Below, in pieces: positions 1 to 42,628 of a DNA stretch of 64,000 nt. Positions within the stretch are counted from its first letter, which is position 1; each line of letters starts with the position of its first letter. The notes beneath the pieces are model-generated. The model made no database searches, was not told the origin of the DNA, and worked only from the letters and a program-made list of their open reading frames with translations. A program made the position numbers and the translations under genes. Origin of the DNA: Zobellia alginiliquefaciens (lineage in GTDB: Bacteria > Bacteroidota > Bacteroidia > Flavobacteriales > Flavobacteriaceae); the NCBI RefSeq assembly GCF_029323795.1, contig NZ_CP119758.1, forward strand, positions 620,001 through 684,000. The letters run 5' to 3'.

Positions 1-3000
1 AGTAATCGTGACCGAACAACCGTTACCGAATGCGGGTACCGATGGTACGTTGACAATCTGTGAAGGAACGACAGTTACAGAATCCCAATTATTTGCTCAA
101 CTAGGTGCTCCCGATTCTGGTGGAACATGGTCCCCGGCAATGAGCGGTGCGGGAACCTATACTTACACCTTAACAGCAACTTCGCCTTGTACAACTGACG
201 ACACTGCAGAAGTAATCGTGACCGAACAACAGTTACCGAATGCCGGGACCGATGGTACGTTGACAATCTGTGAAGGAACTACCGTAACAGAAGCCGAATT
301 ATTCGCTCAAATAGGAACTCATGATTCCGGTGGGACTTGGTCACCGGCGATGGCAGGTGCGGGAACCTATACCTACACCGTTGCAGCTACCTCTCCCTGT
401 ACAGTTGACGACACTGCAGAAGTAACCGTGACCGAACAACCTTTACCGAATGCGGGTACAGACGGTACTTTGACCATTTGCGAGGGAACGACAGTCACAG
501 AATCCGAACTATTCGCTCAAATAGGAACTCATGATTCCGGTGGAACTTGGTCACCGACGATGGGCGGTGCCGGAACCTATACTTATACTGTTGCGGCTAC
601 CTCACCCTGTACAATTGACGACACTTCGGAAGTAATCGTGACCGAACAACCCTTACCGAATGCGGGTACCGATGGTACGTTGACCGTTTGCGAAGGAACT
701 ACCGTAACAGAAGCCGAGCTATTCGCTCAAATAGGAACTCATGATTCCGGTGGAACTTGGTCACCGGCGATGGGCGGTGCCGGAACCTATACCTACACAG
801 TTGAGGCTACCTCACCCTGTACAGTTGAGGCTACCTCACCCTGTACAGTTGACGATACTTCGGAAGTTGTGGTGACCGAACAACCTTTACCAAATGCAGG
901 TGCCGATGGTGCTTTGACCATTTGCGAAGGAACAACAGTCACAGAATCCGAGCTATTCGCTCAAATAGGAGCTCATGATGCCGGCGGGACTTGGTCTCCA
1001 TCAATGGGCGGTGCCGGAACCTATACCTACACTGTTGCAGCTACCTCACCCTGCACCGTTGACGACACCACTGAAGTAACCGTGACCGAACAACCCTTAC
1101 CGAATGCGGGTACCGATGGTGCTTTGACAATATGTGAAGGAACAACTGTCACAGAATCCGAATTATTTGCTCAACTAGGTTCTCCAAATTCTGGCGGAAC
1201 ATGGTCACCGGCAATGGGCGGTGCCGGAACCTATACCTACACTGTTGCGGCTAACTCTCCCTGTACCGTTGACGACACCGCTGAAGTAATTGTGACCGAA
1301 CAACCGTTACCGAATGCGGGTACGGATGGTACGTTGACAATCTGTGAAGGAACTACCGTAACAGAAGCCGAATTATTCGCTCAAATAGAAACTCATGATT
1401 CCGGTGGAACTTGGTCACCGGCAATGGGCGGTGCGGGAACCTATACTTATACCGTAACAGCAACTTCGCCTTGTACAACTGATGATACCTCCCAAGTCGT
1501 GGTATCAGAACAACCCTTACCGAATGCCGGAACCGATGGTACGTTGACAATCTGTGAAGGAACTACCATAACAGAAGCCGAGCTATTCGCTCAAATAGGA
1601 GCTCATGATGCCGGTGGGACTTGGTCACCGGCAATGAGCGGTGCGGGAACCTATACTTACACCGTAACAGCAACTTCGCCTTGTACAACTGATGATACCT
1701 CCCAAGTCGTGGTATCAGAACAACCCTTACCGAATGCCGGGACCGATGGTACGTTGACAATCTGTGAAGGAACTACCATAACAGAAGCCGAGCTATTCGC
1801 TCAAATAGGAGCTCATGATGCCGGCGGGACTTGGTCACCGGCGATGGGCGGTGCGGGAACCTATACTTATACCGTAACAGCAACTTCGCCTTGTACAACT
1901 GATGATACTTCGGAAGTTGTGGTGACCGAACAACCTTTACCAAATGCAGGTGCCGATGGTGCTTTGACCATTTGCGAAGGAACGACCGTAACAGAAGCCG
2001 AGCTATTCGCTCAAATAGGAGCTCACGATTCCGGCGGGACTTGGTCTCCAGCAATGGGCGGTGCCGGAACCTATACCTACACTGTTGCAGCTACCTCACC
2101 CTGCACCGTTGACGACACCACTGAAGTAACCGTGACCGAACAACCCTTACCGAATGCGGGTACCGATGGTGCTTTGACAATATGTGAAGGAACAACTGTC
2201 ACAGAATCCGAATTATTTGCTCAACTAGGTTCTCCAAATTCTGGCGGAACATGGTCACCGGCAATGGGCGGTGCCGGAACCTATACCTACACTGTTGCGG
2301 CTAACTCTCCCTGTACCGTTGACGACACCGCTGAAGTAATTGTGACCGAACAACCGTTACCGAATGCGGGTACGGATGGTACGTTGACAATCTGTGAAGG
2401 AACTACCGTAACAGAAGCCGAATTATTCGCTCAAATAGAAACTCATGATTCCGGTGGAACTTGGTCACCGGCAATGGGCGGTGCGGGAACCTATACTTAT
2501 ACCGTAACAGCAACTTCGCCTTGTACAACTGACGATACCTCCCAAGTTGTGGTGACAGAACAACCCTTACCGAATGCGGGTACCGATGGTGCTTTGACAA
2601 TATGTGAAGGAACAACTGTCACAGAATCCCAATTATTTGCTCAACTAGGTTCTCCAAATTCTGGCGGAACATGGTCACCGGCAATGGGCGGTGCCGGAAC
2701 CTACACCTACACTGTTGCGGCTACCTCACCCTGTACCGTTGAAGACACTGCAGAAGTAGTTGTGACCGAACAACCCTTACCCAATGCGGGTACAGACGGT
2801 ACTTTGACCATTTGTGAGGGCGAAACTGTAAACGAAACCCAACTTTTTAATCAACTTGGTGGAAGCCCAAATTCCGGAGGAACTTGGTCACCGGCGATGG
2901 GCGGTGCAGGCTCGTACACTTATACGGTTTCTAGTCCCGTTTGTGAAAGTGACACATCAACTGTAACCGTTACTGAAGAACATCAACCTAATGCAGGAAC

Positions 3001-3964
3001 CGATGCTACGCTCACCATATGCCCTAATACAACAGTAACTCAAAGTCAACTTTTATCACTTTTACAAACAAACGATACACGTGGTACATGGAACCCTAAT
3101 CCTGAGGATGCAAATGCCGGGGTTTATACCTATACGATTCCTGGAAACATCTGTAATGGGGAGTCAACCTCAACAGTAACGATTATCCTTTCCAATCTTG
3201 ATTCTGATGGAGATATGATATTGGACTGTAATGAAATAATTGATGGAACGGACCCTTTTGACGATTGTGATTCTATTAATGGGACACCACTACCTATTAG
3301 TGATTGTGATAATGATAACCTCTCCGAAGAAGAGGAAACACTATTAGGTACAGACCCGAAGAATCCTGATACCGATGGTGATGGGGTTATAGACGGACAA
3401 GAAGTAACCGACAATACCGACCCACTGGACAGTTGCGATTTTGTCATTGAAAACCAAACCCTGGCTCCATCTAGAATATGGAATATGGAAGATTGTGATA
3501 TGGATGACCTTACGAATGCCCAGGAAATAGATAGAGGTACTGATCCTATCAACCCTGACACGGATGGGGATTTAATCAATGATGGCCAAGAAGTAAATGA
3601 TAACACTGACCCGCTTGACCCATGCGATTCAATTGGCGGTACACCACCTAATACTATTTCATGCGAATTATTCGTTGAATTAGATATTGTACGACCTGGA
3701 GACATTTTAAATGGTGCGTTTAAGATTATAAACATTGACCGTTTTCCTGACAATCACGTTGAAATATTTAACCGTTGGGGAATCCTAGTATGGGAGAGCT
3801 CTGTTTATGATAACCAAAATAATGCATTTGACGGATTGTCTAAAGGAAGAATCACCATAATGGAAAATCAAAAACTGCCTGCCGGTGTTTATTTCTATAA
3901 AATAAAATATGTATCCAAAGGAGAAGACAAGATGCTAGATGGATACTTATATGTGATACGCTAA
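1..3964 (+). CDS. Repetitive T9SS type B surface adhesin (5'-truncated by window)
   Basis: The frame is open from the first base, so the true start lies upstream; the GTG at 8 is only an internal Val codon of a repeat. About fifteen tandem units of roughly 70 residues fill positions 11 to 3180. Each carries NAGTDG-LTICEGTTVTE, GGTWSP and GTYTYTV motifs and a conserved pair of Cys. Positions 3190-3660 encode Asp-rich thrombospondin type 3-like calcium repeats (DSDGD, DTDGDGVIDGQE). From about 3673 the C-terminus (EIFNRWG, LPAGVYFYKI) matches the gliding-motility-associated CHU_C domain that directs T9SS type B secretion and surface anchoring. The ATG of the PorP/SprF gene follows the stop by 2 bp, so the genes are co-transcribed. 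This adhesin plus PorP plus OmpA arrangement recurs in Flavobacteriia. The ligand is unknown. Unit 4 carries an extra 8-residue insertion. Confidence 0.9.
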   Translation, partial: VIVTEQPLPNAGTDGTLTICEGTTVTESQLFAQLGAPDSGGTWSPAMSGAGTYTYTLTATSPCTTDDTAEVIVTEQQLPNAGTDGTLTICEGTTVTEAELFAQIGTHDSGGTWSPAMAGAGTYTYTVAATSPCTVDDTAEVTVTEQPLPNAGTDGTLTICEGTTVTESELFAQIGTHDSGGTWSPTMGGAGTYTYTVAATSPCTIDDTSEVIVTEQPLPNAGTDGTLTVCEGTTVTEAELFAQIGTHDSGGTWSPAMGGAGTYTYTVEATSPCTVEATSPCTVDDTSEVVVTEQPLPNAGADGALTICEGTTVTESELFAQIGAHDAGGTWSPSMGGAGTYTYTVAATSPCTVDDTTEVTVTEQPLPNAGTDGALTICEGTTVTESELFAQLGSPNSGGTWSPAMGGAGTYTYTVAANSPCTVDDTAEVIVTEQPLPNAGTDGTLTICEGTTVTEAELFAQIETHDSGGTWSPAMGGAGTYTYTVTATSPCTTDDTSQVVVSEQPLPNAGTDGTLTICEGTTITEAELFAQIGAHDAGGTWSPAMSGAGTYTYTVTATSPCTTDDTSQVVVSEQPLPNAGTDGTLTICEGTTITEAELFAQIGAHDAGGTWSPAMGGAGTYTYTVTATSPCTTDDTSEVVVTEQPLPNAGADGALTICEGTTVTEAELFAQIGAHDSGGTWSPAMGGAGTYTYTVAATSPCTVDDTTEVTVTEQPLPNAGTDGALTICEGTTVTESELFAQLGSPNSGGTWSPAMGGAGTYTYTVAANSPCTVDDTAEVIVTEQPLPNAGTDGTLTICEGTTVTEAELFAQIETHDSGGTWSPAMGGAGTYTYTVTATSPCTTDDTSQVVVTEQPLPNAGTDGALTICEGTTVTESQLFAQLGSPNSGGTWSPAMGGAGTYTYTVAATSPCTVEDTAEVVVTEQPLPNAGTDGTLTICEGETVNETQLFNQLGGSPNSGGTWSPAMGGAGSYTYTVSSPVCESDTSTVTVTEEHQPNAGTDATLTICPNTTVTQSQLLSLLQTNDTRGTWNPNPEDANAGVYTYTIPGNICNGESTSTVTIILSNLDSDGDMILDCNEIIDGTDPFDDCDSINGTPLPISDCDNDNLSEEEETLLGTDPKNPDTDGDGVIDGQEVTDNTDPLDSCDFVIENQTLAPSRIWNMEDCDMDDLTNAQEIDRGTDPINPDTDGDLINDGQEVNDNTDPLDPCDSIGGTPPNTISCELFVELDIVRPGDILNGAFKIINIDRFPDNHVEIFNRWGILVWESSVYDNQNNAFDGLSKGRITIMENQKLPAGVYFYKIKYVSKGEDKMLDGYLYVIR
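11..3180 (+). repeat. 210-bp tandem coding repeat array, about 15 units
   Basis: Units begin at 11, 221, 431, 641, 875, 1085, 1295, 1505, 1715, 1925, 2135, 2345, 2555, 2765 and 2972. The period is 210 bp except for unit 4 (234 bp) and the divergent last two. The last unit is the most degenerate, as expected at an array edge. Positions 1002-1482 are identical to 2052-2532, an offset of exactly five units, and units 8 and 9 are near-identical neighbours. This indicates expansion by unequal exchange or gene conversion. Confidence 0.95.
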
Positions 3965-3966
3965 AC

Positions 3967-4905
3967 ATGAAAAAAACAACTCTTACGGTTCTGTTTCTAC
4001 TTGTAGCGATGCTCAATTGCTTTGGTCAGCAAGATGCACAATTCACGCAATACATGTATAATACTCTAGCAGTTAATCCCGCATATGCCGGTTCTAGGGA
4101 TGTTCTTGGTGTCTCGTTATTACACAGGTCGCAATGGGTTGGTTTAGATGGTGCACCTAGCACTCAAACTTTTAATATTCAAGGTCCATATAATGACAAA
4201 GTAGGACTAGGGTTTTCTATTGTACACGATGAGATAGGGAATAATACTAACCAAAATACGAATTTTAATCTTGCCTTTTCATATAGCCTACCTACTTCTG
4301 AAAAGTATCAGCTTTCCTTTGGAGTCACCGCAGGCGGACACTTATTGAACGTTGATTTCAATAAACTGAGAAATTATAGCGCAAGTCTAGCCCCTTCAGT
4401 AGAAAATGAACTGTACAAGAAATTTTCTCCTAACATAGGAGCCGGAGTTTATTTTCATTCAAATAAATTTTACATAGGGCTATCGGTTCCGGATTTTTTA
4501 GAGACGGAACACTTTCAAGATCCAGACAACAACAACTCGATCATAGCTTCTGAACGCATGAACTTTTACCTAATTTCCGGATATGTCTTTGACTTAAATT
4601 CTTCGTTAAAATTCAAACCCGCCTATCTTGTGAAGGCAGTTGCCGGTGCGCCACTTCAAGTTGACCTTTCCGCTAACTTTCTCCTAAATGAAAAATTTAC
4701 TTTAGGAGCGGCATATCGTTTAGATGCGGCAGTAAGTGCTCTCTTTGGTTTTCAAATGGGTAAACAATTTATGCTAGGTCTCGCATATGACAGAGAAACA
4801 TCTTCCTTGGGCGGCACCCAATTTAATGATGGCTCTTTTGAAATATTCCTTAGGTATGAATTCATAAAGAACTCGAAAATAGACTTAACCCCAAGATTCT
4901 TCTAG
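3967..4905 (+). CDS. PorP/SprF family type IX secretion membrane protein
   Basis: This 312-residue protein has a signal peptide ending near CFGQ, then the family signature QFTQYMYNTLAVNPAYAGSR, and ends as a predicted outer-membrane beta-barrel. In Flavobacterium johnsoniae, SprF-type proteins are needed for secretion of one partner adhesin encoded next door, and PorP is part of the T9SS outer-membrane complex. The gene lies 2 bp after the repeat adhesin and 2 bp before the OmpA-family gene, so the most likely role is cognate secretion or attachment of the upstream adhesin. The partner assignment is inferred from position. Family membership is confident. Confidence 0.93.
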   Translation: MKKTTLTVLFLLVAMLNCFGQQDAQFTQYMYNTLAVNPAYAGSRDVLGVSLLHRSQWVGLDGAPSTQTFNIQGPYNDKVGLGFSIVHDEIGNNTNQNTNFNLAFSYSLPTSEKYQLSFGVTAGGHLLNVDFNKLRNYSASLAPSVENELYKKFSPNIGAGVYFHSNKFYIGLSVPDFLETEHFQDPDNNNSIIASERMNFYLISGYVFDLNSSLKFKPAYLVKAVAGAPLQVDLSANFLLNEKFTLGAAYRLDAAVSALFGFQMGKQFMLGLAYDRETSSLGGTQFNDGSFEIFLRYEFIKNSKIDLTPRFF

Positions 4906-32161: not shown

Positions 32162-32497
32162 TTATCCGTCAATACGAACTGGCAAAGTATAAGATCTTCC
32201 CTCTTTATACTCATTAACACTTACCTTTTGATTGTGAAGACTTTCTTTCACAAAGGCCTCAACAACCTCATTGGCCGCATCTACGGATAGAACTACAATC
32301 TCACGATTTTCATTTAACGTCAAACATGCAAAGGCAGTTTGGTCAACTTCATTACTTGTCAAGCTATTGTAACTTAATAAATCGTAAATCTGTACTGATA
32401 ATTTCTTTGCGGACTTTTTGTTCTCTCCTTCGTTAGCAGAGACGGTACTCACAGACAGCAGCATTGCAGCTACCAAGAATAAACTAATTTTTCTCAT
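32162..32497 (-). CDS. Small secreted protein, paralog of 40796-41140
   Basis: This 111-residue protein has a signal peptide (MRKISLFLVAAMLLSVSTVSA). The mature part holds KLSVQIYDLLSYNSL, VLSVDAANEVVEAFVKESL and EGRSYTLPVRI. The same order of motifs occurs in the protein at 40796-41140 (VLTSQIYELLGTNVI, ILSIETENEALKDFLKSAI, GIVYRIPIEV), so the two are paralogs. I know no function. Proteins of this look are common, unannotated periplasmic proteins in Flavobacteriia. It lies on the same strand as, and 103 bp downstream of, the Lrp regulator gene. Confidence 0.75.
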   Translation of the reverse strand: MRKISLFLVAAMLLSVSTVSANEGENKKSAKKLSVQIYDLLSYNSLTSNEVDQTAFACLTLNENREIVVLSVDAANEVVEAFVKESLHNQKVSVNEYKEGRSYTLPVRIDG

Positions 32498-32600
32498 AAT
32501 TGTCGTTTTAAATGATTTGATGAACTACCTTAAAGACGACGCATAAATTGAATTGTTACTGGAAAAACTAGACTTTAACAGATAGTTATGATTTAGTTTA

Positions 32601-33062
32601 TCAGCTGTCAAAATTAATGTGCCTACTCATATTCTCTTCCACGGAAATAAAGGATTCAATACCTCTTATACCCTCTATAGTAAGTATAGCTTCTTGATAT
32701 AGGTTTCTATAGTGCAAACTATCTTTTGCATGGACCTTAATGAAAATATCATATTTACCAGTACTGTGATGAATTTTAACTACCTCCTGAATTTTTGCTA
32801 ACTCCTCTATTACCACCTTGTATAAAAAACTTTCTCTCAGATAGATACCTAAAAAAACGGTCATCTTATACCCCATTTTACTATAGTCTAAACTAAGGGT
32901 AGCCCCTTTAATAACCCCCATGTTTTTCATCTTTCGCGTTCGCATGTGTACTGTTCCTGGGGATATGCCTGCCCGCTTGGCTACTTCGGTATAGGGCATT
33001 TGTGCATCATCTGATAATAAAGTCAATATTTTGTGGTCTACTGAATCAAGTTTATCTCTCAT
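32601..33062 (-). CDS. Lrp/AsnC family transcriptional regulator
   Basis: This 153-residue protein has an N-terminal winged helix-turn-helix (LDSVDHKILTLLSDDAQMPY, then AGISPGTVHMRTRKMKNMGVI) and a C-terminal RAM ligand-binding domain (FLGIYL, VVKIHHSTGKYDIFIKVHAKD). Lrp/AsnC proteins sense amino acids and often control a divergent transport or catabolic gene. Here the divergent neighbour is a TonB receptor gene followed by an aminotransferase and alanine dehydrogenase, which makes alanine or a related amino acid a plausible effector. That is inference. The 555-bp shared upstream region contains repeated TCGTT-ATTTT motifs. Confidence 0.93.
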   Translation of the reverse strand: MRDKLDSVDHKILTLLSDDAQMPYTEVAKRAGISPGTVHMRTRKMKNMGVIKGATLSLDYSKMGYKMTVFLGIYLRESFLYKVVIEELAKIQEVVKIHHSTGKYDIFIKVHAKDSLHYRNLYQEAILTIEGIRGIESFISVEENMSRHINFDS

Positions 33063-33617
33063 TTGTAGTATTTTTCTCGGTTATTTTTTCCCCCTCATTT
33101 TTCCTTCAATCCTTGATAATCAGGTTTGTTAACATAAAAAATCTTCCATTTAATTTACCATTTAAAGGATTTTAGTAAAAATAGTTTAATGATTTCAAAA
33201 AATCAGTTATAATTCACTAATTAAACCCGTTTTTTTATGGATATAATTAAAAATTGCCTAGTCCAAATTTTCAATACCATAAAAATGGTTTTTTAACGCA
33301 ATATTTACATATCGTTAGATTTTTAAAATTAAAAAATCTGAAAATTGTCATATCGTTCAATTTTTCCTTCAAAAATACCAATTCGTTAGATTTTATTGTC
33401 ATAACTAACTAAAACACAGTGTTTTCAGGGTTTGCCGAATTTTTTTAAACCAAAAAGTCACCCTAATATTGTGGTGTCGTTAGGTCGTAAACAGTGACCA
33501 TCGACACGTTAAGTATCCGGAACTTTTCTTTTATCACATTTGACCACCGTCCCCCGATTGGATAAGGTGTGGTTGGGCAAATGAACAATGTTTAGTATCA
33601 ACCAAAACCTTGTACTT
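33063..33617. promoter_or_regulatory. Divergent regulatory region with repeated TCGTT motifs
   Basis: This AT-rich non-coding region separates the Lrp gene and the TonB receptor gene. ATCGTTAGATTTTT (33311), ATCGTTCAATTTTT (33352) and TTCGTTAGATTTT (33382) are repeated in one orientation, with a shorter TCGTTAGG at 33477. An 8-bp inverted repeat, AGATTTTT (33317-33324) with AAAAATCT (33332-33339), overlaps the first copy. These are candidate Lrp binding sites. The 81-residue minus-strand frame overlapping the receptor start is not credible as a gene. Confidence 0.6.
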
Positions 33618-36563
33618 ATGAAGAAAGCTCTAATACTATCACTCTTATTTTTAAACTGTATGATATCATACGGACAAGAGACGACTATTACCGGTACGGT
33701 AGTAGATGAAGAAGGAGTCGTGCTACCAGGCACAGACATTATTATTAAAGGCACAACAAAAGGAACACTTACTGATTTTGATGGAAATTATTCGATAGAC
33801 GCTCCGGCAGATGCTATCCTTATATTCTCATCCTTAGGATACGGAACTAAAGAAGTTCCGGTAGGCGGCCAAGCAACCGTAAACGTAACCTTGGCCATGG
33901 CAGCAGAACAACTGCTGGAAACTATTGTAATTGGCTCCAGGGGACAACCTAGAACCAAACTGAACACTCCGGTTCCGGTAGATGTTATAAATATTAAAGA
34001 AGAAGCTATTAATATGCCTCAACAAGATCTTTCCCAAATGTTGGCTGCGTCGGCACCATCATTCACCGCATATACTAGTGGTGGTGGAGACCTATCATCA
34101 TTTGTTAGCCCACCAAGCCTTAGGGGTCTGGCACCTAACCAAATGTTGGTTTTGGTAAACGGAAAGAGAAGACATACCTCGGCCATATTAGCCGCATCGC
34201 AAACCGGTACACCTTCTAATGCGGTGGACATGAAATTTATACCTTCCATTGGTATTGACCGTATTGAAATACTTCGTGACGGTGCCTCGGCACAATATGG
34301 CTCAGATGCCATTGCAGGGGTAATCAATGTAGTTACCAAAAAGGGAACCGGTGAATTTACTGGAACCCTTACTGTGGGTGGCTATCCTAACAAGTCTCCC
34401 GATTTTAGTGATTCGGACTTAACCGATGGCGAGAAAGCTTTAAACAGGTCTTCCGGTGATTGGGATGGTTTTAATTTTCAATTTGACGGTAATTACGGAA
34501 TCGGATTCGAAAATGGTGGTTACTTTAATGTATCTGCATTAATAAGCCAATCCGAACGAACCATACGCCCTACTGTTCTTGAGATAGATAGAGCTCCGCT
34601 TTACAGCGATACCTATTTGAACAACCAAACCACAGATGTAAACGGAAGACCCGTAATAACCAACCCAGAACTAGTTGCCGCACAAGCAAGCGGAAACACC
34701 GCAGCAATGAGCACGTTAACAACAGTAGAAGGGCTCATGGCAGCAAGAGATATTGAACAAGTAGATGTAGCAACGTATTCAGGACTCCCGGCCAAGACAC
34801 TCATGGGCTTTGGCTTTAATCTTGAAAATCCGTTGAGTGAAACTACGGATTTTTATGCTTTTGGGGATTTCGGTTACCAGTATTCAGATGCTTATAGCTG
34901 TTTCTACAGAAGAGCTGCACAAGCGGACAGAACTAGTTTTGACCTATACCCTAACGGATTTAGACCTCAAATTTATACGGATCAATACAATCTTTCTTTG
35001 TCCACGGGACTTACCGGAGAGCTTGGTGATTTTGATTTTGACCTGAGCAATACCTTCGGTTATAATTCCGCTAAATACGGCATGTTCAATACCTGGAATG
35101 CAAGTATCGGAACCAGTTCACCAACAGAAATGTATTTAGGTACGCACAGTTTTGCCCAAAACACATTAAATCTGGATTTCACAAACTATTATGATGATAT
35201 CCTATCTGGACTTAACGTAGCTTTTGGTGGTGAATTAAGAGTTGAAAACTATGCTATTGTTGCTGGCCAAGAAGAAAGTTGGACAGCAGGAACAGCAGGT
35301 GTAGTTACCGCAACAGAAGACAATCAAGCATTAGTTGGTCCTGACGGTTTTCCTTTAGAGGACTTAAACGGAACTCCTATTGTTGACGATTCCGGAAACC
35401 CTGTTGTATTACCATACGCAGGAGTTAGCCAGGAATTGGTTAAAAATTATGCATTAAACTGCCAGTGTTTCCGAGGTTTTGCGCCTGAAAACGAAAGTAA
35501 CTCTTACCGTTCGGTAATGGCCGCTTATATAGATATGGAATTGGATGTTACCGAAGCTTTCTTAGTTTCCGGAGCACTTCGCTTAGAAAACTACTCAGAT
35601 TTTGGTAACGTATTGACCGGTAAGGTAGCCGCACGTTATTCTATTGGCGATAATTTTGCATTGAGAGGTTCTTTCAGCAGTGGCTTTAGAGCTCCATCAT
35701 TACAAGAATTGAACTACTCGCACAGTTATACTTTTTTCGTTGGTCTAGAGCCATTTGACGGTACGTTATACCCTAATAGCAGTTCTGCTGCAAGAGCATT
35801 GGGCATAGGTCAATTACAAGAAGAGCGTTCTAGAAACTACAGCTTAGGTTTCACAACCAAAATAGGAAAAGTGAACCTAACTGTTGATGCCTATAAAATT
35901 GACATATTCGATAGAATCTTTGAAACTGGTGAATTTGATGCAGGCCAAGCTCCTGTGCTTTCTCCAATCATCGGTAGCGGTTTAGCTAGTTTTAGAATCA
36001 ACGGTGGCGACATTAGTACTAAAGGTATTGAAGCCGTACTGAACTATAATAAGAATATTGGTGCAGGCAAGTTAGGAGTGACCCTTTCGGGAACATTTAG
36101 AGAGAATAAATTTGAAAATGTAAATATCCCTGACCTAAACACCAATCTTACGGATGAAGAATTGGCTGACAACTACGTAAACAGAGGTCTTATCGGACAG
36201 TTTGAAACCGGTACACCAAGTAGTAAGATCATAGGAACATTAAATTACTCTATTGGTAAATTCTCAGCTATGCTAAGAGGTACAAGATTTGGTTCGGTTC
36301 AAACTAGAGATAGCAGAGAACGTACTTTACTAGATGGCAGCACAGGTTATGCCGATCAATATTTCACGCCTGAGTTCACTACGGACATGGGTGTCACTTA
36401 CAACTTTTCAGACAAAATCAGTTTCACCATAGGAGGTAACAACATATTTAATGAATACCCAGAAATAGTAAGGTATGAATTAAGGACCTTCAACTTGTAT
36501 TCTAACTATCAGCAAGGATCATCGGGATCTTACTACTTCGGTAGGTTAACCTTTACACTATAG
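33618..36563 (+). CDS. TonB-dependent receptor (amino-acid cluster)
   Basis: The start is set at the ATG at 33618, which gives a clean signal peptide (MKKALILSLLFLNCMISYGQ) and 981 residues; the upstream ATG at 33588 would add ten residues before it. A carboxypeptidase-regulatory-like domain (GTVVDEEGVVLPGTDIIIKG) is followed by a plug (SLRGLAPNQMLVLVNGKRRH, RIEILRDGASAQYGSDAIAG) and a long beta-barrel ending in TFTL. It imports a substrate across the outer membrane using TonB energy. It heads a same-strand series with a lipoprotein, aminotransferase, permease and Ald, so amino acids or peptides are plausible substrates (inference). Its barrel is strikingly similar to the receptor at 62462. 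Confidence 0.92.
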   Translation: MKKALILSLLFLNCMISYGQETTITGTVVDEEGVVLPGTDIIIKGTTKGTLTDFDGNYSIDAPADAILIFSSLGYGTKEVPVGGQATVNVTLAMAAEQLLETIVIGSRGQPRTKLNTPVPVDVINIKEEAINMPQQDLSQMLAASAPSFTAYTSGGGDLSSFVSPPSLRGLAPNQMLVLVNGKRRHTSAILAASQTGTPSNAVDMKFIPSIGIDRIEILRDGASAQYGSDAIAGVINVVTKKGTGEFTGTLTVGGYPNKSPDFSDSDLTDGEKALNRSSGDWDGFNFQFDGNYGIGFENGGYFNVSALISQSERTIRPTVLEIDRAPLYSDTYLNNQTTDVNGRPVITNPELVAAQASGNTAAMSTLTTVEGLMAARDIEQVDVATYSGLPAKTLMGFGFNLENPLSETTDFYAFGDFGYQYSDAYSCFYRRAAQADRTSFDLYPNGFRPQIYTDQYNLSLSTGLTGELGDFDFDLSNTFGYNSAKYGMFNTWNASIGTSSPTEMYLGTHSFAQNTLNLDFTNYYDDILSGLNVAFGGELRVENYAIVAGQEESWTAGTAGVVTATEDNQALVGPDGFPLEDLNGTPIVDDSGNPVVLPYAGVSQELVKNYALNCQCFRGFAPENESNSYRSVMAAYIDMELDVTEAFLVSGALRLENYSDFGNVLTGKVAARYSIGDNFALRGSFSSGFRAPSLQELNYSHSYTFFVGLEPFDGTLYPNSSSAARALGIGQLQEERSRNYSLGFTTKIGKVNLTVDAYKIDIFDRIFETGEFDAGQAPVLSPIIGSGLASFRINGGDISTKGIEAVLNYNKNIGAGKLGVTLSGTFRENKFENVNIPDLNTNLTDEELADNYVNRGLIGQFETGTPSSKIIGTLNYSIGKFSAMLRGTRFGSVQTRDSRERTLLDGSTGYADQYFTPEFTTDMGVTYNFSDKISFTIGGNNIFNEYPEIVRYELRTFNLYSNYQQGSSGSYYFGRLTFTL

Positions 36564-36598
36564 AAAAGAATATCCGGTAAAACTTAAAAAAGATAATT

Positions 36599-37099
36599 AT
36601 GATAAAGTATATAAAAAACATTTTAGTAGTAATGGTGGTCGCCACAGGTCTCATCTCTTGTGAACAAGAAAGACTGGACCCCGTTCTTACAACAGCTGAA
36701 GGAGGAGGCACACTTAGCCAGTACATGGCATACACCGTAGCAGCTACTGACCCCGCAGGATCAAATGTAAATGGAAGAATTGTTTTCTGGAAAGATAACC
36801 TTGACCGCACTTTAGTACAGATTGCACTATACAATACTATAGAAGGACTATCGCATCCCGCTTTGATTATGGATGGAATGGTAGGCACCGGAACCACTAC
36901 AATGATTGCACTAGACGATGTTTCCGGAGATAGCGGTGAATTTACGACGAATAAATTCTTCATTATTTCCGACACCAGTTTTTATGATTCTATCCCTGAG
37001 ATGGATTCCCACATAAACATCTACCTAAGCGACTCTGATGATACCATTGTTGCTTCGGGAGATTTAGGCGCAAATGCCGAACCAGTAGAAATGAATTAG
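36599..37099 (+). CDS. Small lipoprotein of unknown function
   Basis: This 166-residue protein has a lipoprotein signal (VVATGLISC, lipobox Cys at 21). The mature domain has an all-beta look with GRIVFWKDNLDRTLVQIALY and ALIMDGMVGTGTTTMIALDDV segments, slightly reminiscent of CHRD-type domains, but I do not assign it. It starts 35 bp after the TonB receptor and ends 29 bp before the aminotransferase. It could be a surface or periplasmic partner of the receptor, as SusD-like or HmuY-like lipoproteins are for others. It is much shorter than SusD. Confidence 0.7.
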   Translation: MIKYIKNILVVMVVATGLISCEQERLDPVLTTAEGGGTLSQYMAYTVAATDPAGSNVNGRIVFWKDNLDRTLVQIALYNTIEGLSHPALIMDGMVGTGTTTMIALDDVSGDSGEFTTNKFFIISDTSFYDSIPEMDSHINIYLSDSDDTIVASGDLGANAEPVEMN

Positions 37100-37128
37100 A
37101 CTTTTTTAACTTAAATACAGACAGCATT

Positions 37129-38319
37129 ATGAACACTTTAGACAGAAGAGCTTGGTTGAAACGAGGAATGATAACTGCCGCAGGCGCAATGGTTATTCCA
37201 CATGTAACGTTTGGTAAATCCACTTACGTAAACGGATTTCCTACGAACGCTGAAGGACAGACACTTTACAGTCCATTTTTTAAGGAGTACAACTCTGAAG
37301 TATTTCCGGATACGGTAAAGTTATTGGCTAAATTAAATGCCAACGAAAACCCTTATGGCCCATCTCCTAAGGCAATTGAAGCTTTTAAGGAGTCTGCACA
37401 TTTAGGGAACAGATATGCTTGGAAAGAGCTTTTTGACTTGATGGAAAAAATAGCGGCAGAAGAAAAAGTAACCGCCAAGAATATTATGACCGGTCCGGGT
37501 TCATCGGATTTATTGGAAAAAACTGCAATGGTATTATTTGCCGATGGAGGAAACATTGTATCTGCAGACCCATCATACATGTCGCTCATAAAAGTAGCTC
37601 AGGCTACAGGTGCCACTTGGAAACCTGTTCCGTTAAAAGATGATTGGTCCCATGACCTTGCCGGAATGGAAGCCGCAATAGATTCTGATACCAAATTGGT
37701 TTACATCTGTAACCCGAACAATCCAACAGGTAGTATGACGGACCATGCAGAACTTCTTGATTTCTGTTCGCGTGTATCGGAAAAGGTTCCTGTATTTATA
37801 GATGAAGCATATTTAGGCTTTTTAGATGATGCAGCGGAAAAAAGTATGGTATCATTAATCAATGAAGGTAAGGATGTAATCATAGCTCGTACTTTTTCTA
37901 AAATACACGGTATGGCCGGTTTACGCCTAGGCTATATTGTTGCTCAAGAAACTACCCTAGGTAAAATTCAAAAAATAACACGTGGCGGTATGGGTATCTC
38001 CTACCCTAGCATATTTGCGGCATCTACTAGTATGGACGATATTGAGTTTCAGAACAAATCTAGAAAACTGAATGCAGAATGCAGGGAGTATGTTTATAGT
38101 GTATTGGACAAAATGGGCTACGAGTATGTTCCTTCTTCTACCAGCTTTATCCTTTTCCCAATTGAAATGGAAGGAAAAGTATTCTTAGAAAAAATGACTG
38201 CGGAAGGTGTTGGTGTACGTGCTTTTGACATCATGGATAAAAACTGGTGTCGTGTGAGTATGGGTACTATGGAAGAAATGAAAGTTTTTGGTACAGCTCT
38301 ACAGAAAGTCCTCGCTTAA
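37129..38319 (+). CDS. Tat-exported PLP aminotransferase, HisC-like
   Basis: This 396-residue class I/II aminotransferase is most like histidinol-phosphate aminotransferases. It has a twin-arginine signal at its start (DRRAWLKRGMITAAGAMVIPH), which implies folding with PLP in the cytoplasm and export to the periplasm. Active-site features are LNANENPYGPSP, the substrate-pocket motif CNPNNPTGS, DEAYLGF, and the Schiff-base Lys in TFSKIHGMAGLRLGY. It is not in a his operon. It sits between a TonB receptor/lipoprotein pair and a permease/alanine dehydrogenase pair, so a role in extracytoplasmic amino-acid conversion is likely. The substrate is unknown. Confidence 0.88.
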   Translation: MNTLDRRAWLKRGMITAAGAMVIPHVTFGKSTYVNGFPTNAEGQTLYSPFFKEYNSEVFPDTVKLLAKLNANENPYGPSPKAIEAFKESAHLGNRYAWKELFDLMEKIAAEEKVTAKNIMTGPGSSDLLEKTAMVLFADGGNIVSADPSYMSLIKVAQATGATWKPVPLKDDWSHDLAGMEAAIDSDTKLVYICNPNNPTGSMTDHAELLDFCSRVSEKVPVFIDEAYLGFLDDAAEKSMVSLINEGKDVIIARTFSKIHGMAGLRLGYIVAQETTLGKIQKITRGGMGISYPSIFAASTSMDDIEFQNKSRKLNAECREYVYSVLDKMGYEYVPSSTSFILFPIEMEGKVFLEKMTAEGVGVRAFDIMDKNWCRVSMGTMEEMKVFGTALQKVLA

Positions 38320-38451
38320 GTACTATGTAATATCCCTGAGAGTCGATGTTTTTTATCGTCAACTGCCTTGATATTCCTAGATATTGGCTCTCATTGGGTT
38401 ATTCATTCCTTTTTACCTACTCACATCCATAACTCTTAAACTGAACACCTT

Positions 38452-39603
38452 ATGAATTTTGCCCTTCAAAACACGTTAGAACTTTTACTCATTATTGGTT
38501 TAGGGCTGTTACTGCAAAAAAAAGTAGCAAAACAAGACCTTAAAGGCGTCAAGGTAATTATACTAAGCGTTGCCTTACCGGCCGTAATTTTCGTCGCCCT
38601 TTTAAAAATAAAATTAGATAGTTCCTTATTGATTTTCCCCCTACTGGCCTTGGCATTTAATCTTGTTATGCTATTGGCTTCAAAATACCTATTGAACTCA
38701 TCGGTACCAAAAGAGGAAAGTTCAAAAAGAAGAACTATCATGATGCTAATGCCTTCGTTGGCTCCAGGACTTTCCTGCTTTCCGTTCATTGCCATTTACT
38801 TAGGTGATGACTCCGTAGCACTGGCCGCCCTAGCAGATGTTGGGAACAAAATTTTTGTTCTGATACTGCTTTATATGGTTGCTATGCACTGGTATCAAAA
38901 AAGAGCTTTAAAAGATTTACAAACCTCAACCTCTAACAAATTAAAGGGTTTAGGTTTAGCCTTAATAAAAGAGCCTATTAATATGGTTATCATCGTAGGT
39001 CTTTTATTATTGTCTTTCGGGTTTAACATAGAATCATTGCCTGGTTTTTTACAAAATACTGCATTGAGCATAAAAGTTATAATGACACCTCTTATACTAT
39101 TGTTTATTGGTATGGCAGTACGTATTAAATCTGGTGAGTTTGGCCTTATCCTCTCTCTCTTAACACGTAGAGCAGGAATTACATTCTGCCTTTCCGCTAT
39201 TTTTATTTTACTATTCCCAGGCTTAGCCGCACCATTAGTTTTGCTCATAATAGTATTCCCGCAAAGCTCATGTAGTTTCTGGCCTTTTGCCCATATGAGT
39301 GCAATTAGCTCCATGGAAGAAGAAGATAAGCAGGATAAACCAACCTTTGACATCAATTTTGCCGTTAATATTTTGGCATTATCATTACCGTTTTCTACCA
39401 TGCTCGCCATAGGAATATTCACCTTTAGCGATTTCTTTATCAACCCTGCAATTTTACTATTAATAGGTTTTGGTATGATAACGGTTTCTTTTATTCCTTA
39501 TCTAATTGAAAAAGTAAAGAAAAGCAAAGAAACGGACCTATCCGGCCAATTTAATACATACGCGGGTATCGATAATCATTCACAACCTTCAGAAGACAAC
39601 TAA
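38452..39603 (+). CDS. AEC-type (auxin efflux carrier-like) permease
   Basis: This 383-residue protein has about ten hydrophobic segments in two halves joined by short charged loops, resembling the AEC/bile-acid-sodium-symporter-like permeases. Helix-like stretches include TLELLLIIGLGLLL, VIILSVALPAVIFVALL and LFIGMAVRI. The C-terminal 30 residues are hydrophilic. It lies 132 bp after the aminotransferase and 38 bp before alanine dehydrogenase, so it probably moves an amino or keto acid across the inner membrane. The direction and substrate are not known. The family call is moderate because AEC members are very divergent. Confidence 0.7.
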   Translation: MNFALQNTLELLLIIGLGLLLQKKVAKQDLKGVKVIILSVALPAVIFVALLKIKLDSSLLIFPLLALAFNLVMLLASKYLLNSSVPKEESSKRRTIMMLMPSLAPGLSCFPFIAIYLGDDSVALAALADVGNKIFVLILLYMVAMHWYQKRALKDLQTSTSNKLKGLGLALIKEPINMVIIVGLLLLSFGFNIESLPGFLQNTALSIKVIMTPLILLFIGMAVRIKSGEFGLILSLLTRRAGITFCLSAIFILLFPGLAAPLVLLIIVFPQSSCSFWPFAHMSAISSMEEEDKQDKPTFDINFAVNILALSLPFSTMLAIGIFTFSDFFINPAILLLIGFGMITVSFIPYLIEKVKKSKETDLSGQFNTYAGIDNHSQPSEDN

Positions 39604-39641
39604 TTTTAGAAAATACTTATTAAATTTATCTAAAAAAAATT

Positions 39642-40721
39642 ATGACAATTGGTATCCCAAAGGAGGTGAAAAATAACGAGAGCCGCGTAGGTATGACACC
39701 TGGTGGTGTTTTTGAATTAACTAAAAAAGGTCATATTGTTTATGTTCAGTCCAGTGCCGGAGATGGAAGCGGTTTTTTTGACAATGACTACAAAAAAGCA
39801 GGAGCACTTATTTTAGACACTATAGGCCAAGTTTATGGCATTAGTGAAATGATCGTAAAGGTCAAAGAACCTATGCCCGAGGAGTACGATTTAGTACAGC
39901 CAGATCAAATAGTTTTCACCTACTTTCATTTTGCCTCTAGTGAGCCATTGACCAAAGCAATGATAGAAAGCAAATCTATCTGTATTGCTTATGAAACGGT
40001 CGAAGACACAGATGGCACCTTACCGTTACTTACTCCAATGTCCGAAGTGGCCGGGAGAATGGCAATTCAACAAGGAGCCAAATACTTAGAAAAACCAGCA
40101 AAAGGAAGAGGTGTTCTTTTAGGTGGAGTACCTGGTGTTGCGCCCGGCAAAGTATTGGTATTGGGTGGCGGTGTAGTTGGCGTTCAAGCGGCTAAAATGG
40201 CTGCAGGCCTTGGGGCTCAAGTTACCATATTAGACATTAACATGAAGCGACTTAGACATATAAATGATGTTATGCCTCCTCATGTAGTGACAGAGTTCTC
40301 CAATGAATTTAATATCCGAAAGCATATTCAAACGCATGACCTAATTATTGGCGGCGTTCTTTTAAAAGGAGCTAAAGCTCCAAATCTTATTACCAGGGAT
40401 ATGCTGAAAGAAATGAGACCAGGGACGGTTATAGTAGATGTTGCCGTAGACCAAGGCGGATGTGTAGAAACCACGAAGCCCACCACTCATGAAGACCCTA
40501 TTTATATTATTGACGATGTTGTACATTATTCAGTTGCCAATATGCCCGGAGCTGTTCCGTATACATCTACCGTTGCACTTACCAATGTAACCCTACCTTA
40601 TGTATTAAAACTAGCCAATTTAGGATGGGCAAATGCTACTGATGCAGACCCAGCGCTTAAGAAAGGGCTAAATATAATTAACGGAGAAGTGGTTTATGAT
40701 GGTATTCTGGAAGCATTTTAA
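39642..40721 (+). CDS. ald: Alanine dehydrogenase
   Basis: This 359-residue NAD-dependent enzyme interconverts L-alanine with pyruvate plus ammonium. N-terminal IGIPKEVKNNESRVGMTPG carries the Arg that binds pyruvate, followed by the conserved MIVKVKEP segment. The Rossmann motif is VLVLGGGVVGVQAAKMAAGLGA, and VDVAVDQGGCVETT plus the VANMPGAVPYTST motif are classic Ald signatures. It is the last gene of the TonB/aminotransferase cluster and is followed by a strong terminator, consistent with catabolism of an imported amino acid. The Lrp gene at the other end is a natural regulator. Confidence 0.95.
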   Translation: MTIGIPKEVKNNESRVGMTPGGVFELTKKGHIVYVQSSAGDGSGFFDNDYKKAGALILDTIGQVYGISEMIVKVKEPMPEEYDLVQPDQIVFTYFHFASSEPLTKAMIESKSICIAYETVEDTDGTLPLLTPMSEVAGRMAIQQGAKYLEKPAKGRGVLLGGVPGVAPGKVLVLGGGVVGVQAAKMAAGLGAQVTILDINMKRLRHINDVMPPHVVTEFSNEFNIRKHIQTHDLIIGGVLLKGAKAPNLITRDMLKEMRPGTVIVDVAVDQGGCVETTKPTTHEDPIYIIDDVVHYSVANMPGAVPYTSTVALTNVTLPYVLKLANLGWANATDADPALKKGLNIINGEVVYDGILEAF

Positions 40722-40740
40722 ATACTAAACACCCATAAAA

Positions 40741-40776
40741 AAAAGCGGTCTCCTTACAAATAAGAGACCGCTTTTT
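40741..40776. terminator. Bidirectional terminator after ald
   Basis: AAAAGCGGTCTC (40741-40752) and GAGACCGCTTTT (40764-40775) form a perfect 12-bp stem with an 11-base loop and flanking A- and T-runs. It serves both ald and the convergent small secreted protein gene. Confidence 0.92.
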
Positions 40777-40795
40777 CAATTATAAAATGAGCTTT

Positions 40796-41140
40796 TTATC
40801 GCTTTGCAACTTCAATTGGAATACGATATACAATTCCTTTTTCAAAAGTACCTTTTGATAATTTTTCAAAGTCAATCGCACTTTTCAAAAAATCTTTCAA
40901 AGCTTCGTTTTCTGTTTCTATTGAAAGAATTCTTAAGTAGTTTCCTTCATCAACAGCAACCCTAACTTCTGCTTTAGAGCCCCTAATATCATTAGGAATA
41001 ACATTTGTTCCTAGCAACTCATAGATTTGCGAAGTAAGAACTTTTAATGCTTTTGGTTCGTGTAATTCTGGTGTACCGGCAAATGCGTAGCCTATGTTCA
41101 GCGCCATCATCACCATAAGGGCATAAACTGATTTTTTCAT
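40796..41140 (-). CDS. Small secreted protein, paralog of 32162-32497
   Basis: This 114-residue protein has a signal peptide (MKKSVYALMVMMALNIGYAFA). The mature part shows VLTSQIYELLGTNVI, ILSIETENEALKDFLKSAI and GIVYRIPIEV in the same order and spacing as in the 111-residue protein at 32162. The relation is evident by eye although most positions differ. No enzyme motif is visible. It stands alone on the minus strand, convergent with ald, at the opposite edge of the Lrp-to-Ald cluster from its paralog. Function unknown. Confidence 0.75.
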   Translation of the reverse strand: MKKSVYALMVMMALNIGYAFAGTPELHEPKALKVLTSQIYELLGTNVIPNDIRGSKAEVRVAVDEGNYLRILSIETENEALKDFLKSAIDFEKLSKGTFEKGIVYRIPIEVAKR

Positions 41141-41376
41141 GATTTGTTGTTTTGTTTTGCTAATTCAGATAACTAATTCATGTTAAAGATATTACAATAT
41201 ACAGGTCTCATACTGGTTATTTACTAAAATTTAACACTAAAAAACAGTAATGTCATAAAATAGGCGCAAAAACTAACGATACCTCAGCTTTTACCTATAC
41301 CTGAGCCATATACAAATCTGGCTATTGGAAAATAGCTTCCATCGAGAATAAAAAATAAGGATAAATTGAGAATAAA

Positions 41377-41410
41377 AAAGAGGGATAAACTGTGACGCTT
41401 ACCCCTCTTT
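41377..41410 (-). terminator. Terminator of sucC
   Basis: AAAGAGGGATAA (41377-41388) pairs with TTACCCCTCTTT (41399-41410) over 12 bp with one mismatch. On the minus strand it is followed by a T-run. Confidence 0.75.
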
Positions 41411-41434
41411 AAAATTTATTAAAAGCAGAAAATT

Positions 41435-42628
41435 CTAAGCCAGAACCTCTTTTACTTTATCCGCAGCTTCTTGAAACTGAACTGCAGAATGTACCGCTAA
41501 ACCAGAGTTATCAATAATCTCTTTTGCAATCTCTGCATTGGTTCCTTGCAAACGCACAATAATAGGAACTTTAATAGCATCTCCCATATTTTTGTAAGCC
41601 TCTACAATACCATTTGCTACACGATCACAACGCACAATACCTCCAAAGATATTTACAAGAATTGCTTTAACACCCTCGTCTTTTAAAATAATACGAAACG
41701 CTTCTTCAACTCTTTTCGCATCTGCAGTACCACCAACATCCAAGAAGTTGGCAGGCTCACCACCGGCCATCTTGATTAAATCCATTGTAGCCATTGCAAG
41801 TCCGGCTCCGTTAACCATACAGCCAACGTTACCATCTAAGTCTACATAGTTTAATCCTAACGCACCCGCCTCAACTTCGATCGGGTTTTCCTCTCGTAAG
41901 TCGCGCATTTCTGCATACTGTTTTCTACGGTACAATGCATTATCATCAATAGACACCTTTGCATCTACTGCCATAATTTTATCATCTGATGTTTTCAATA
42001 CAGGGTTGATTTCAAACATGCTAGAGTCACTCTCTACATACGCTTTATACAAAGAAGCAACGAATTTGGTCATTTCTTTAAAAGCAGTTCCGGAAAGCCC
42101 TAGGTTAAAAGCTATTTTTCTAGCTTGAAACGGTAAAAGACCTGTAGCAGGATCAATCTCTTCGGTAAAAATAAGATGTGGAGTGCTCTCGGCAACTTCC
42201 TCAATATCCATTCCACCTTCCGTAGAATACATAATCATATTTCTACCTGTTCCCCTATTTAATAGAACAGACATGTAAAACTCACTAGTTTCGCTATCGC
42301 CCGGGTAGTATACATCCTCGGCAACTAAAACTTGATGTACTTTTTTACCGGCTGCAGAAGTCTGAGGGGTAATTAGGTTCATTCCAATAATGTTCCCTGC
42401 GATCTCCTCTACTTCTTTTAGGTTTTTGGCCAATTTTACACCTCCACCTTTACCACGGCCACCTGCATGTACCTGGGCTTTTATAACGTGCCAACCTGTT
42501 CCGGTCTCTGCAGTTAGTTGTTTTGCAGCCTCAACGGCTTCCTTTGAATTATGGGCCACGATACCGCGCTGAATGCGCACACCGAAACTGGCCAAAATCT
42601 CTTTTCCTTGGTACTCGTGAAGATTCAT
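41435..42628 (-). CDS. sucC: Succinyl-CoA synthetase (ADP-forming) beta subunit
   Basis: This 397-residue TCA-cycle enzyme subunit makes ATP or GTP from succinyl-CoA together with the SucD alpha subunit. It opens with the family N-terminus NLHEYQGKEILASFGV. The ATP-grasp region includes VIKAQVHAGGRGKGGGVKLA, and later FEINPVLKTSDDKIMAVDAKVSIDDNAL, NGAGLAMATMDLIKMAGGEPANFLDVGG and NIFGGIVRCD are diagnostic. The length is standard. No sucD is adjacent, as is usual in many Bacteroidota where the genes are apart. A -7 element lies 27 bp upstream and a terminator follows, so it is monocistronic. Confidence 0.97.
   Translation of the reverse strand: MNLHEYQGKEILASFGVRIQRGIVAHNSKEAVEAAKQLTAETGTGWHVIKAQVHAGGRGKGGGVKLAKNLKEVEEIAGNIIGMNLITPQTSAAGKKVHQVLVAEDVYYPGDSETSEFYMSVLLNRGTGRNMIMYSTEGGMDIEEVAESTPHLIFTEEIDPATGLLPFQARKIAFNLGLSGTAFKEMTKFVASLYKAYVESDSSMFEINPVLKTSDDKIMAVDAKVSIDDNALYRRKQYAEMRDLREENPIEVEAGALGLNYVDLDGNVGCMVNGAGLAMATMDLIKMAGGEPANFLDVGGTADAKRVEEAFRIILKDEGVKAILVNIFGGIVRCDRVANGIVEAYKNMGDAIKVPIIVRLQGTNAEIAKEIIDNSGLAVHSAVQFQEAADKVKEVLA

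What the first reader, a model, noticed from the sequence alone, without database searches (positions are those of the whole stretch)
33618..40721. Extracytoplasmic aminotransferase joined to TonB uptake and alanine dehydrogenase
A Tat-signalled, HisC-like PLP enzyme between a TonB receptor/lipoprotein pair and an AEC permease plus Ald suggests an undescribed route in which an amino acid is converted in the periplasm, moved in and deaminated. The divergent Lrp is a fitting sensor. The Tat signal and gene order are seen; the pathway is inferred.
Basis: partly seen in the sequence, partly recalled or inferred. Interest (0 to 1): 0.7.

Follow-up and report, generated by a model that had tools for sequence, protein, structure and literature searches.

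The report
Exported transaminase paired with a permease
A marine flavobacterium carries an amino-group-transferring enzyme that is apparently sent out across the inner membrane and, in its close relatives, is almost always encoded next to the same membrane transporter, which suggests that amino acids are converted outside the cell interior before being taken up.

Summary
The main new result is that the aminotransferase (AT) and the AEC-like permease form a dedicated pair. In 249 genomes of the family the AT orthologue (E<=1e-100) occurs in 29 and the permease (E<=1e-10) in 28; all 28 lie directly downstream of the AT on the same strand.

The other genes are lineage-specific. Of 60 related loci, 19 have the TonB receptor, 20 the CHRD-like lipoprotein, 17 the divergent Lrp, 19 a secreted carbamoylase-family amidase and only 5 alanine dehydrogenase.

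Tat-exported periplasmic PLP transaminases are known (PtaA of Pseudomonas), but this enzyme scores below the PtaA and HisC cut-offs, and no permease-coupled system was found in the papers searched. The receptor operon also has a conserved operon-specific leader: a hairpin plus the near-palindrome AAGTNTCCGGAACTT. Export, substrate, acceptor and transport direction are inferred, and the AEC label is weak.

The parts
32601..33062 (-). Lrp/AsnC-family regulator, divergent from the operon
   Evidence: PF13412, PF13404, PF01037 all above cut-off; divergent partner of the TonB receptor in 17 of the 19 loci that have the receptor
33464..33471 (+). TAATATTG, promoter -7-like element of the receptor operon
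   Evidence: in the 22 rows of A3 its last three bases TTG are invariant and four of the others at least 90% conserved; resemblance to the Bacteroidota TAnnTTTG element is recalled, not tested
33472..33510 (+). leader hairpin of variable sequence
   Evidence: 22 of 22 segments folded: each is matched or beaten by 0-30 of 200 mononucleotide shuffles; window 0 of 200. The whole 171-base leader is not unusually stable (z -1.37, 18 of 200 shuffles as good)
33511..33525 (+). AAGTATCCGGAACTT, operon-specific near-palindrome
   Evidence: AAGTNTCCGGAACTT occurs once in the window's genome; it lies upstream of the TonB receptor in 10 of the 11 family genomes with this operon, and the 13 hits in other genomes all lie inside ORFs
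33618..36563 (+). TonB-dependent receptor with CarboxypepD_reg N-terminal domain
   Evidence: PF00593, PF07715, PF13715 above cut-off; not SusC (TIGR04056 142.1 < 368.25); ORF opens at 33588
36599..37099 (+). small lipoprotein with a degenerate CHRD-like domain, possibly surface-exposed
   Evidence: invariant S-C lipobox in 20 of 20; profile match to a CHRD protein, probability 97.9%; directly upstream of the AT in 11 of 11 family genomes with a close copy; surface exposure is a guess
37129..38319 (+). Tat-signalled HisC-like PLP aminotransferase (AT)
   Evidence: PF00155 178.5 bits; RR motif in 99 of 100 homologue ORFs; Lys258, Asp225, Asn197, Tyr228, Arg266, Arg375 invariant in a 10-row alignment that includes E. 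coli HisC and the genome's own HisC-like ORF
38452..39603 (+). AEC-like inner-membrane permease, dedicated partner of the AT
   Evidence: directly downstream of the AT in 28 of 28 family genomes that hold it and in 58 of 60 loci; PF03547 in 11 of 32 alignment members, UbiA in 5 of 32
39642..40721 (+). alanine dehydrogenase, lineage-specific neighbour
   Evidence: TIGR00518 508.3 bits, above cut-off; present after the permease in 5 of 60 loci

Best explanation
The core is a two-gene periplasmic transamination module. A folded PLP aminotransferase is exported by Tat and, outside the inner membrane, moves an amino group between an amino acid that has reached the periplasm and a 2-oxo acid. The AEC-like permease is its dedicated inner-membrane carrier; it either brings the 2-oxo acid (or amino acid) product in or supplies the 2-oxo acid acceptor, which an exported transaminase cannot otherwise obtain. 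In the Zobellia-Maribacter lineage a TonB receptor and a small lipoprotein were added to feed the periplasm, under a local regulator (probably the divergent Lrp) and a structured leader. In Allomuricauda/Flagellimonas a secreted carbamoylase-family amidase was added instead. In Zobellia and Pricia an alanine dehydrogenase was added, which fits pyruvate as acceptor and alanine as the molecule brought back. Shown: gene content, Tat motif, catalytic residues, AT-permease linkage, leader conservation. Inferred: export, reaction, substrate, acceptor, direction of transport, regulation.
For: Tat motif in 99 of 100 AT ORFs, the exception being a fragment of a split gene; TatC in all 29 AT genomes, though TatC is in 244 of 249 anyway. 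Permease in 28 of 249 family genomes, 28 of 28 next to the AT, and in 2 of 247 class genomes, both with the AT. One-base overlap of AT and permease ORFs in 24 of 58 pairs and a gap of 36 or less in 40 of 58, starts being those of the longest ORF. AT tree: all 77 rows labelled with the permease fall in one 82-row clade, support 100/94. TonB receptor with lipoprotein, or a SusC/SusD-type pair, in front of the AT-AEC pair in separate lineages. A secreted amidase follows the pair in 19 of 60 loci; the one copy scanned is above the hydantoinase/carbamoylase cut-off (TIGR01879 409.1 > 204). Two sister-clade ATs lie beside a flavin amine oxidase. Precedent PtaA/PvdN: Tat export with bound PLP (PMC6206403, passages).
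Against: No biochemical data. The window permease has no significant AEC hit and its substrate class is uncertain; UbiA matches some relatives as weakly. 41 of 60 loci have no receptor like the window's in front of the pair (7 of the 60 have short flanks). Ald is rare in the neighbourhood. AT without the adjacent permease: Dyadobacter (2 loci), G439, and G207, whose AT also passes E 1e-100 but falls outside the 82-row clade. TatC is almost universal in the family, so its presence discriminates little.
Confidence: 0.5

Rival explanations
1. The AT tailors a secreted compound such as a metallophore in the periplasm, as PtaA does for pyoverdine, and the TonB receptor takes the loaded compound back up.
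For: PtaA is a Tat-exported transaminase of this broad family (PMC6206403, passages); the receptor plug resembles siderophore receptors (PirA, FepA). Zobellia and Maribacter strains release the iron-binding morphogen thallusin (PMC9696546, passages).
Against: AT scores 211.1 against the 500 needed for PtaA. 41 of 60 loci have the AT without a receptor like the window's (7 of the 60 with short flanks). No biosynthetic gene was recognised beside it. Plug similarity is generic.
Confidence: 0.15
2. The pair works in the export direction: the AT makes an amino acid or 2-oxo acid product (for instance an aromatic one) outside the membrane from material that the AEC carrier, a family named for efflux, pushes out.
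For: Weak AEC homology; overlapping ORFs of the pair; many pairs without recognisable uptake genes beside them (the listing was cut at L090-L093).
Against: Receptor, SusC/D-type and secreted amidase neighbours point to uptake and breakdown; Ald is usually catabolic (recalled).
Confidence: 0.2
3. The genes are independent neighbours: an exported AT of unknown role beside housekeeping transport and Ald genes.
For: Ald and the receptor are absent beside most of the 60 pairs; Zobellia ATs are not one group in the tree, so the AT has been exchanged on its own or with part of the operon.
Against: 28 of 28 permease genomes have it next to the AT, across genera; lipoprotein directly upstream of the AT in 11 of 11.
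Confidence: 0.1

Closest known systems
PtaA, periplasmic transaminase A (Pseudomonas; NCBIfam NF051461)
   Same: HisC-like PLP transaminase with a Tat signal; PtaA leaves the cytoplasm with its cofactor bound, and how the cofactor is regenerated outside is left open (PMC6206403, passages)
   Different: 211.1 bits vs cut-off 500; here paired with a permease and, in this lineage, a TonB receptor; Bacteroidota; no link to pyoverdine
PRK09105 aminotransferase subfamily (NCBIfam NF006580)
   Same: best-scoring family, 270.5 bits over residues 66-395
   Different: below its cut-off of 444
HisC, histidinol-phosphate transaminase (TIGR01141)
   Same: sequence family and catalytic residues
   Different: 249.6 < 276.55; about 31-35 residues longer at the N-terminus than the genome's own HisC-like ORF and E. 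coli HisC; the genome has that separate HisC-like ORF at C1:4727877
AEC transporter family (PF03547), e.g. E. coli YfdV
   Same: weak similarity in 11 of 32 alignment members, best E 3.2e-6; hhalign to YfdV over 205 columns, E 3e-4, probability 40%
   Different: window protein has no hit above threshold; found only in AT-bearing genomes in the two sets searched

Membership tests
HisC (TIGR01141) | score above curated cut-off | tested here: not met
   249.6 vs 276.55
HisC (TIGR01141) | histidine-operon context | tested here: not met
   no his gene recognised beside it; another HisC-like ORF of the genome lies between ORFs read by eye as HisB-like and HisD-like
PtaA (NF051461) | score above curated cut-off | tested here: not met
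   211.1 vs 500
PtaA (NF051461) | Tat signal peptide | tested here: met
   MNTLDRRAWLKRG; motif in 99 of 100 homologue ORFs
PtaA (NF051461) | periplasmic location shown | not testable with these tools
   needs fractionation
PLP fold-type I aminotransferase (PF00155) | profile score and catalytic Lys, Asp, Asn, Tyr, Arg | tested here: met
   178.5 bits vs 19.7; residues invariant in the 10 rows of A4; residue roles recalled
AEC transporters (PF03547) | score above curated cut-off | tested here: inconclusive
   no PF03547 hit for the window protein; 11 of 32 members match at E<=0.1, best 3.2e-6, while UbiA matches 5 of 32, best 6.5e-6; L059 20.4 vs 25.7
AEC transporters (PF03547) | ten-helix crossover fold (recalled) | not testable with these tools
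   structure prediction switched off; no PDB sequence hit
SusC/RagA receptors (TIGR04056) | score above curated cut-off and SusD partner | tested here: not met
   142.1 vs 368.25; partner is a CHRD-like lipoprotein, not SusD
CHRD domain (PF07452) | score above curated cut-off | tested here: not met
   0 of 20 members hit CHRD at E<=1; profile similarity to a CHRD protein 97.9%
Alanine dehydrogenase (TIGR00518) | score above curated cut-off | tested here: met
   508.3 vs 391.85
Lrp/AsnC | HTH plus ligand-binding domain | tested here: met
   PF13412 50.8, PF01037 55.8, both above cut-off

The most novel reading that the evidence does not exclude
A two-protein trans-membrane amino-group shuttle: a Tat-exported transaminase works in the periplasm on scavenged amino acids, and its obligate AEC-like partner exchanges 2-oxo acid and amino acid across the inner membrane. 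Carbon skeletons and amino groups would then cross separately, and the acceptor and cofactor-recycling problem left open for PtaA is solved by a dedicated carrier. In Zobellia-Maribacter the module is wired to TonB uptake and to an operon-specific RNA leader/operator.
Probability: 0.3. Interest if true: 0.75.

Novelty: new variant of a known kind. Interest (0 to 1): 0.52.

Why it matters
Transamination is treated as cytoplasmic, and the described exception, pyoverdine tailoring in Pseudomonas, left open how the cofactor is recycled outside. A transaminase with a dedicated carrier partner, found in many marine Bacteroidota, makes that question testable with two genes and would add a new way for these bacteria to take up amino-acid nitrogen and carbon.

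Tried and rejected
AEC and lipoprotein structure prediction: tool off. PDB sequence searches with the permease and lipoprotein profiles found nothing. Sigma-70-type promoter and terminator scans of 32500-41500 were no richer than shuffles (19 vs 25.5, 7 vs 6.5). TCGTTAG repeats in the Lrp-receptor gap looked like regulator sites but are not consistently kept in relatives. Rfam: no family at gathering score in the window; on the leader only a sub-threshold mir-676 match (15.6 vs 61 bits). The whole leader folds only slightly better than shuffles (z -1.37), so only the short hairpin is claimed. The leader motif as a general TonB-receptor element: rejected, since the 13 hits in genomes without the operon all lie inside ORFs. 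A recombination signal from synonymous sites was not clear-cut; the AT tree shows the exchange better. The secreted amidase as a missing part of the window's own system: own genome has no close copy (best E 1e-5). Active-site residues did not separate HisC from aromatic-type substrates. Literature: ten searches of an open-licence library that lacks most subscription papers. Those aimed at this system returned the pyoverdine papers, a few incidental hits, or nothing; no description of an AT-AEC system was seen. Only PMC6206403 and PMC9696546 were opened, and only passages were read.

Rows dropped or misscored: L094 and L098 were labelled as lacking the permease because an over-long ORF start made the genes overlap; searches show that both have it. 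One search left out L103, L104, L105 and L109 as repeats of named species; L022 was left out because its motif lacks the spacer base. One search's listing was cut (L090-L093 not fully seen). Ranges of AT-permease gaps use the longest ORF start, which misplaces the permease start in L009 (-32) and perhaps L017 (28).
Full report
OBSERVATION. The intergenic gaps (35, 29, 132, 38 bases) fit one operon. The window lies in a single-contig 5.07-Mb genome whose nearest named relatives by gene content are Zobellia species. The AT is about 31-35 residues longer at the N-terminus than the genome's own HisC-like ORF and E. coli HisC, and the extra part holds RRAWLK. TatC is encoded.

THE AMINOTRANSFERASE. 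It is a class I/II aminotransferase (PF00155 178.5 bits). The best named models include PRK09105, HisC and PtaA, all three below their cut-offs (270.5/444, 249.6/276.55, 211.1/500). The nearest solved chain is 3ly1, deposited as a putative histidinol-phosphate aminotransferase (E 2.8e-49). Catalytic residues are intact (roles recalled). The Tat motif (RR, any residue, one of WFLYIAM, one of LIVFM, within the first 60 residues) is present in 99 of 100 homologous ORFs from the loci held at that time (the set contains repeated species), including distant ones at 35-40% identity. The Tat-type signal is therefore a property of the whole clade, not of one gene.

THE CORE IS AT PLUS PERMEASE. The search for related loci, which finds close relatives only, gave 60 loci, all Bacteroidota by title or taxonomy; the permease gene is directly downstream in 58 of 60, the two misses being Dyadobacter. 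In an evenly drawn set of 249 genomes of the same family, the AT at E<=1e-100 is in 29 and the permease at E<=1e-10 in 28. All 28 are among the 29, adjacent and on the same strand by their coordinates. The AT genome without a permease is G439, whose AT is the most diverged of the 29 (48%). In 247 genomes of the class the permease occurs in two, both with the AT; a third genome, G207, has an AT at E 6e-108 (48%) and no permease. In 24 of 58 pairs the ORFs overlap by one base; in 18 of the 20 loci with the lipoprotein they are 93-127 bases apart, the other two (L009, L017) having longer permease ORFs. A maximum-likelihood tree (94 rows) puts all 77 rows labelled with the permease in one 82-row clade (100/94). 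The five other rows in it are Dyadobacter (2) and G439, read as losses, and L094 and L098, which do have the permease and were mislabelled; G207 falls outside. The 60 loci and the 249 genomes were drawn by different routes but share species.

WHAT WAS ADDED TO THE CORE. TonB receptor 19 of 60, CHRD-like lipoprotein 20 of 60, divergent Lrp 17 of 60, Ald 5 of 60 (named Zobellia and Pricia loci; Ald is also found in the unnamed same-genus loci L102 and L103), secreted amidase 19 of 60 (7 of the 60 loci have short flanks, so these are lower bounds). The amidases carry a Sec-type N-terminus (read by eye). The one copy scanned (L024) is above the cut-off of hydantoinase/carbamoylase TIGR01879 and of one 'allantoate amidohydrolase' subfamily, and below that of N-carbamyl-L-glutamate hydrolase ErtE. 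In L071 a SusC/SusD-type pair precedes AT-AEC. Among three sister-clade loci, two ATs (L072, L073) lie beside a flavin amine oxidase; its N-terminus reads TRRDFLG in L073 but DRKTFIQ in L072 (by eye), so Tat export is likely for one and doubtful for the other. All three (L071 second copy, L072, L073) have a ~320-residue protein with a Hint-domain match just above cut-off. The recurring theme is extracytoplasmic amino-acid chemistry.

RECEPTOR AND LIPOPROTEIN. The receptor has plug, barrel and CarboxypepD_reg domains; among solved siderophore receptors only its plug region is matched, which says little about ligand. The lipoprotein has no Pfam hit itself. Its profile matches 41 of 249 genomes at E<=1e-6: close single-domain copies (E<=1e-60) in 11, all 11 directly upstream of the AT, and weaker matches, mostly tandem ~120-residue repeats in larger ORFs, elsewhere. 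Two of those larger proteins were scanned and are CHRD proteins, and the lipoprotein profile aligns to one at 97.9% probability. The HxH motif seen in those repeats (HPAHIH in L151) is missing in the lipoprotein (by eye).

LEADER. Between Lrp and the receptor lies a conserved order: TAATATTG-like box, hairpin, AAGTNTCCGGAACTT, receptor start. Among the 18 loci whose receptor upstream is held, 16 have TCCGGAACTT there. L017 has AAGCCTCCGGAGCTT, a paired change that keeps the palindrome; L053 has nothing similar. L022 has a perfect palindrome without the spacer base. TATCCGGAACTTTTC occurs once exactly in the window's genome; at up to two mismatches it is no commoner than the reversed control (16 vs 24). 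AAGTNTCCGGAACTT occurs in 23 of 249 family genomes, once each: 10 at this operon (10 of the 11 genomes with it, G354 missing) and 13 inside ORFs of other genes. The hairpin arms differ between species, yet in all 22 segments tested only 0-30 of 200 mononucleotide shuffles fold as well; related sequences are not independent, and the full 171-base leader is not unusual (z -1.37). The palindrome suggests an operator for a dimeric protein such as the divergent Lrp; the hairpin suggests an RNA element; both may hold.

MECHANISM. Shown: gene content, motif, linkage, conservation. From established knowledge: Tat exports folded cofactor-bound proteins, and PtaA/PvdN of Pseudomonas are exported with PLP (PMC6206403, passages). 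Inferred: the AT needs a 2-oxo acid acceptor outside the membrane, and a carrier never found without it in the sets searched is the natural supplier or remover of the 2-oxo or amino acid. Where Ald follows, pyruvate/alanine is the most economical acceptor/product pair.

NOVELTY AND LIMITS. Exported transaminases are known; a permease-coupled one is not described in the papers searched. The permease's family and the substrate are the weakest points. Interest is moderate: the linkage is solid, the chemistry unknown.

Noticed in passing
window 33464-33525 (and e.g. L009:4337-4418, L010:4331-4412): Operon-specific leader: promoter-like TAATATTG, hairpin with species-variable arms, then near-palindrome AAGTNTCCGGAACTT; a possible regulator operator or new cis-regulatory RNA.
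   Followed up: partly
L009, L018, L019, L102 versus window 37129-38319: Zobellia ATs are not one group in the tree: the window's, L009 and L102 go with Maribacter polysiphoniae, L018/L019 with another Maribacter/Cellulophaga group at the same chromosomal place, which suggests in-place exchange between species.
   Followed up: partly
L072:8664-12425, L073:7127-10995, L071:4003-6124: Sister Tat-signalled ATs: in L072 and L073 they lie beside a flavin amine oxidase (RR-type N-terminus in L073, RK in L072), and all three loci hold a ~320-residue protein with a Hint-domain match just above cut-off.
   Followed up: partly
L024:7088-8383 and 18 further loci: A secreted hydantoinase/carbamoylase-family amidase follows the AT-AEC pair in Allomuricauda/Flagellimonas-type genomes (19 of 60).
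   Followed up: partly
window 32162-32497 (-) and 40796-41140 (-): Two related small secreted-looking proteins (111 and 114 aa, no Pfam hit) flank the operon on both sides, and do so in several relatives.
   Followed up: no
L064:7986-9180 and L093: AT gene split into two ORFs (frameshift or sequencing error) while the permease is kept.
   Followed up: no
window 1-4000: G+C 0.477 against 0.364-0.411 in the rest of the window; no Rfam family and no tRNA found there.
   Followed up: no
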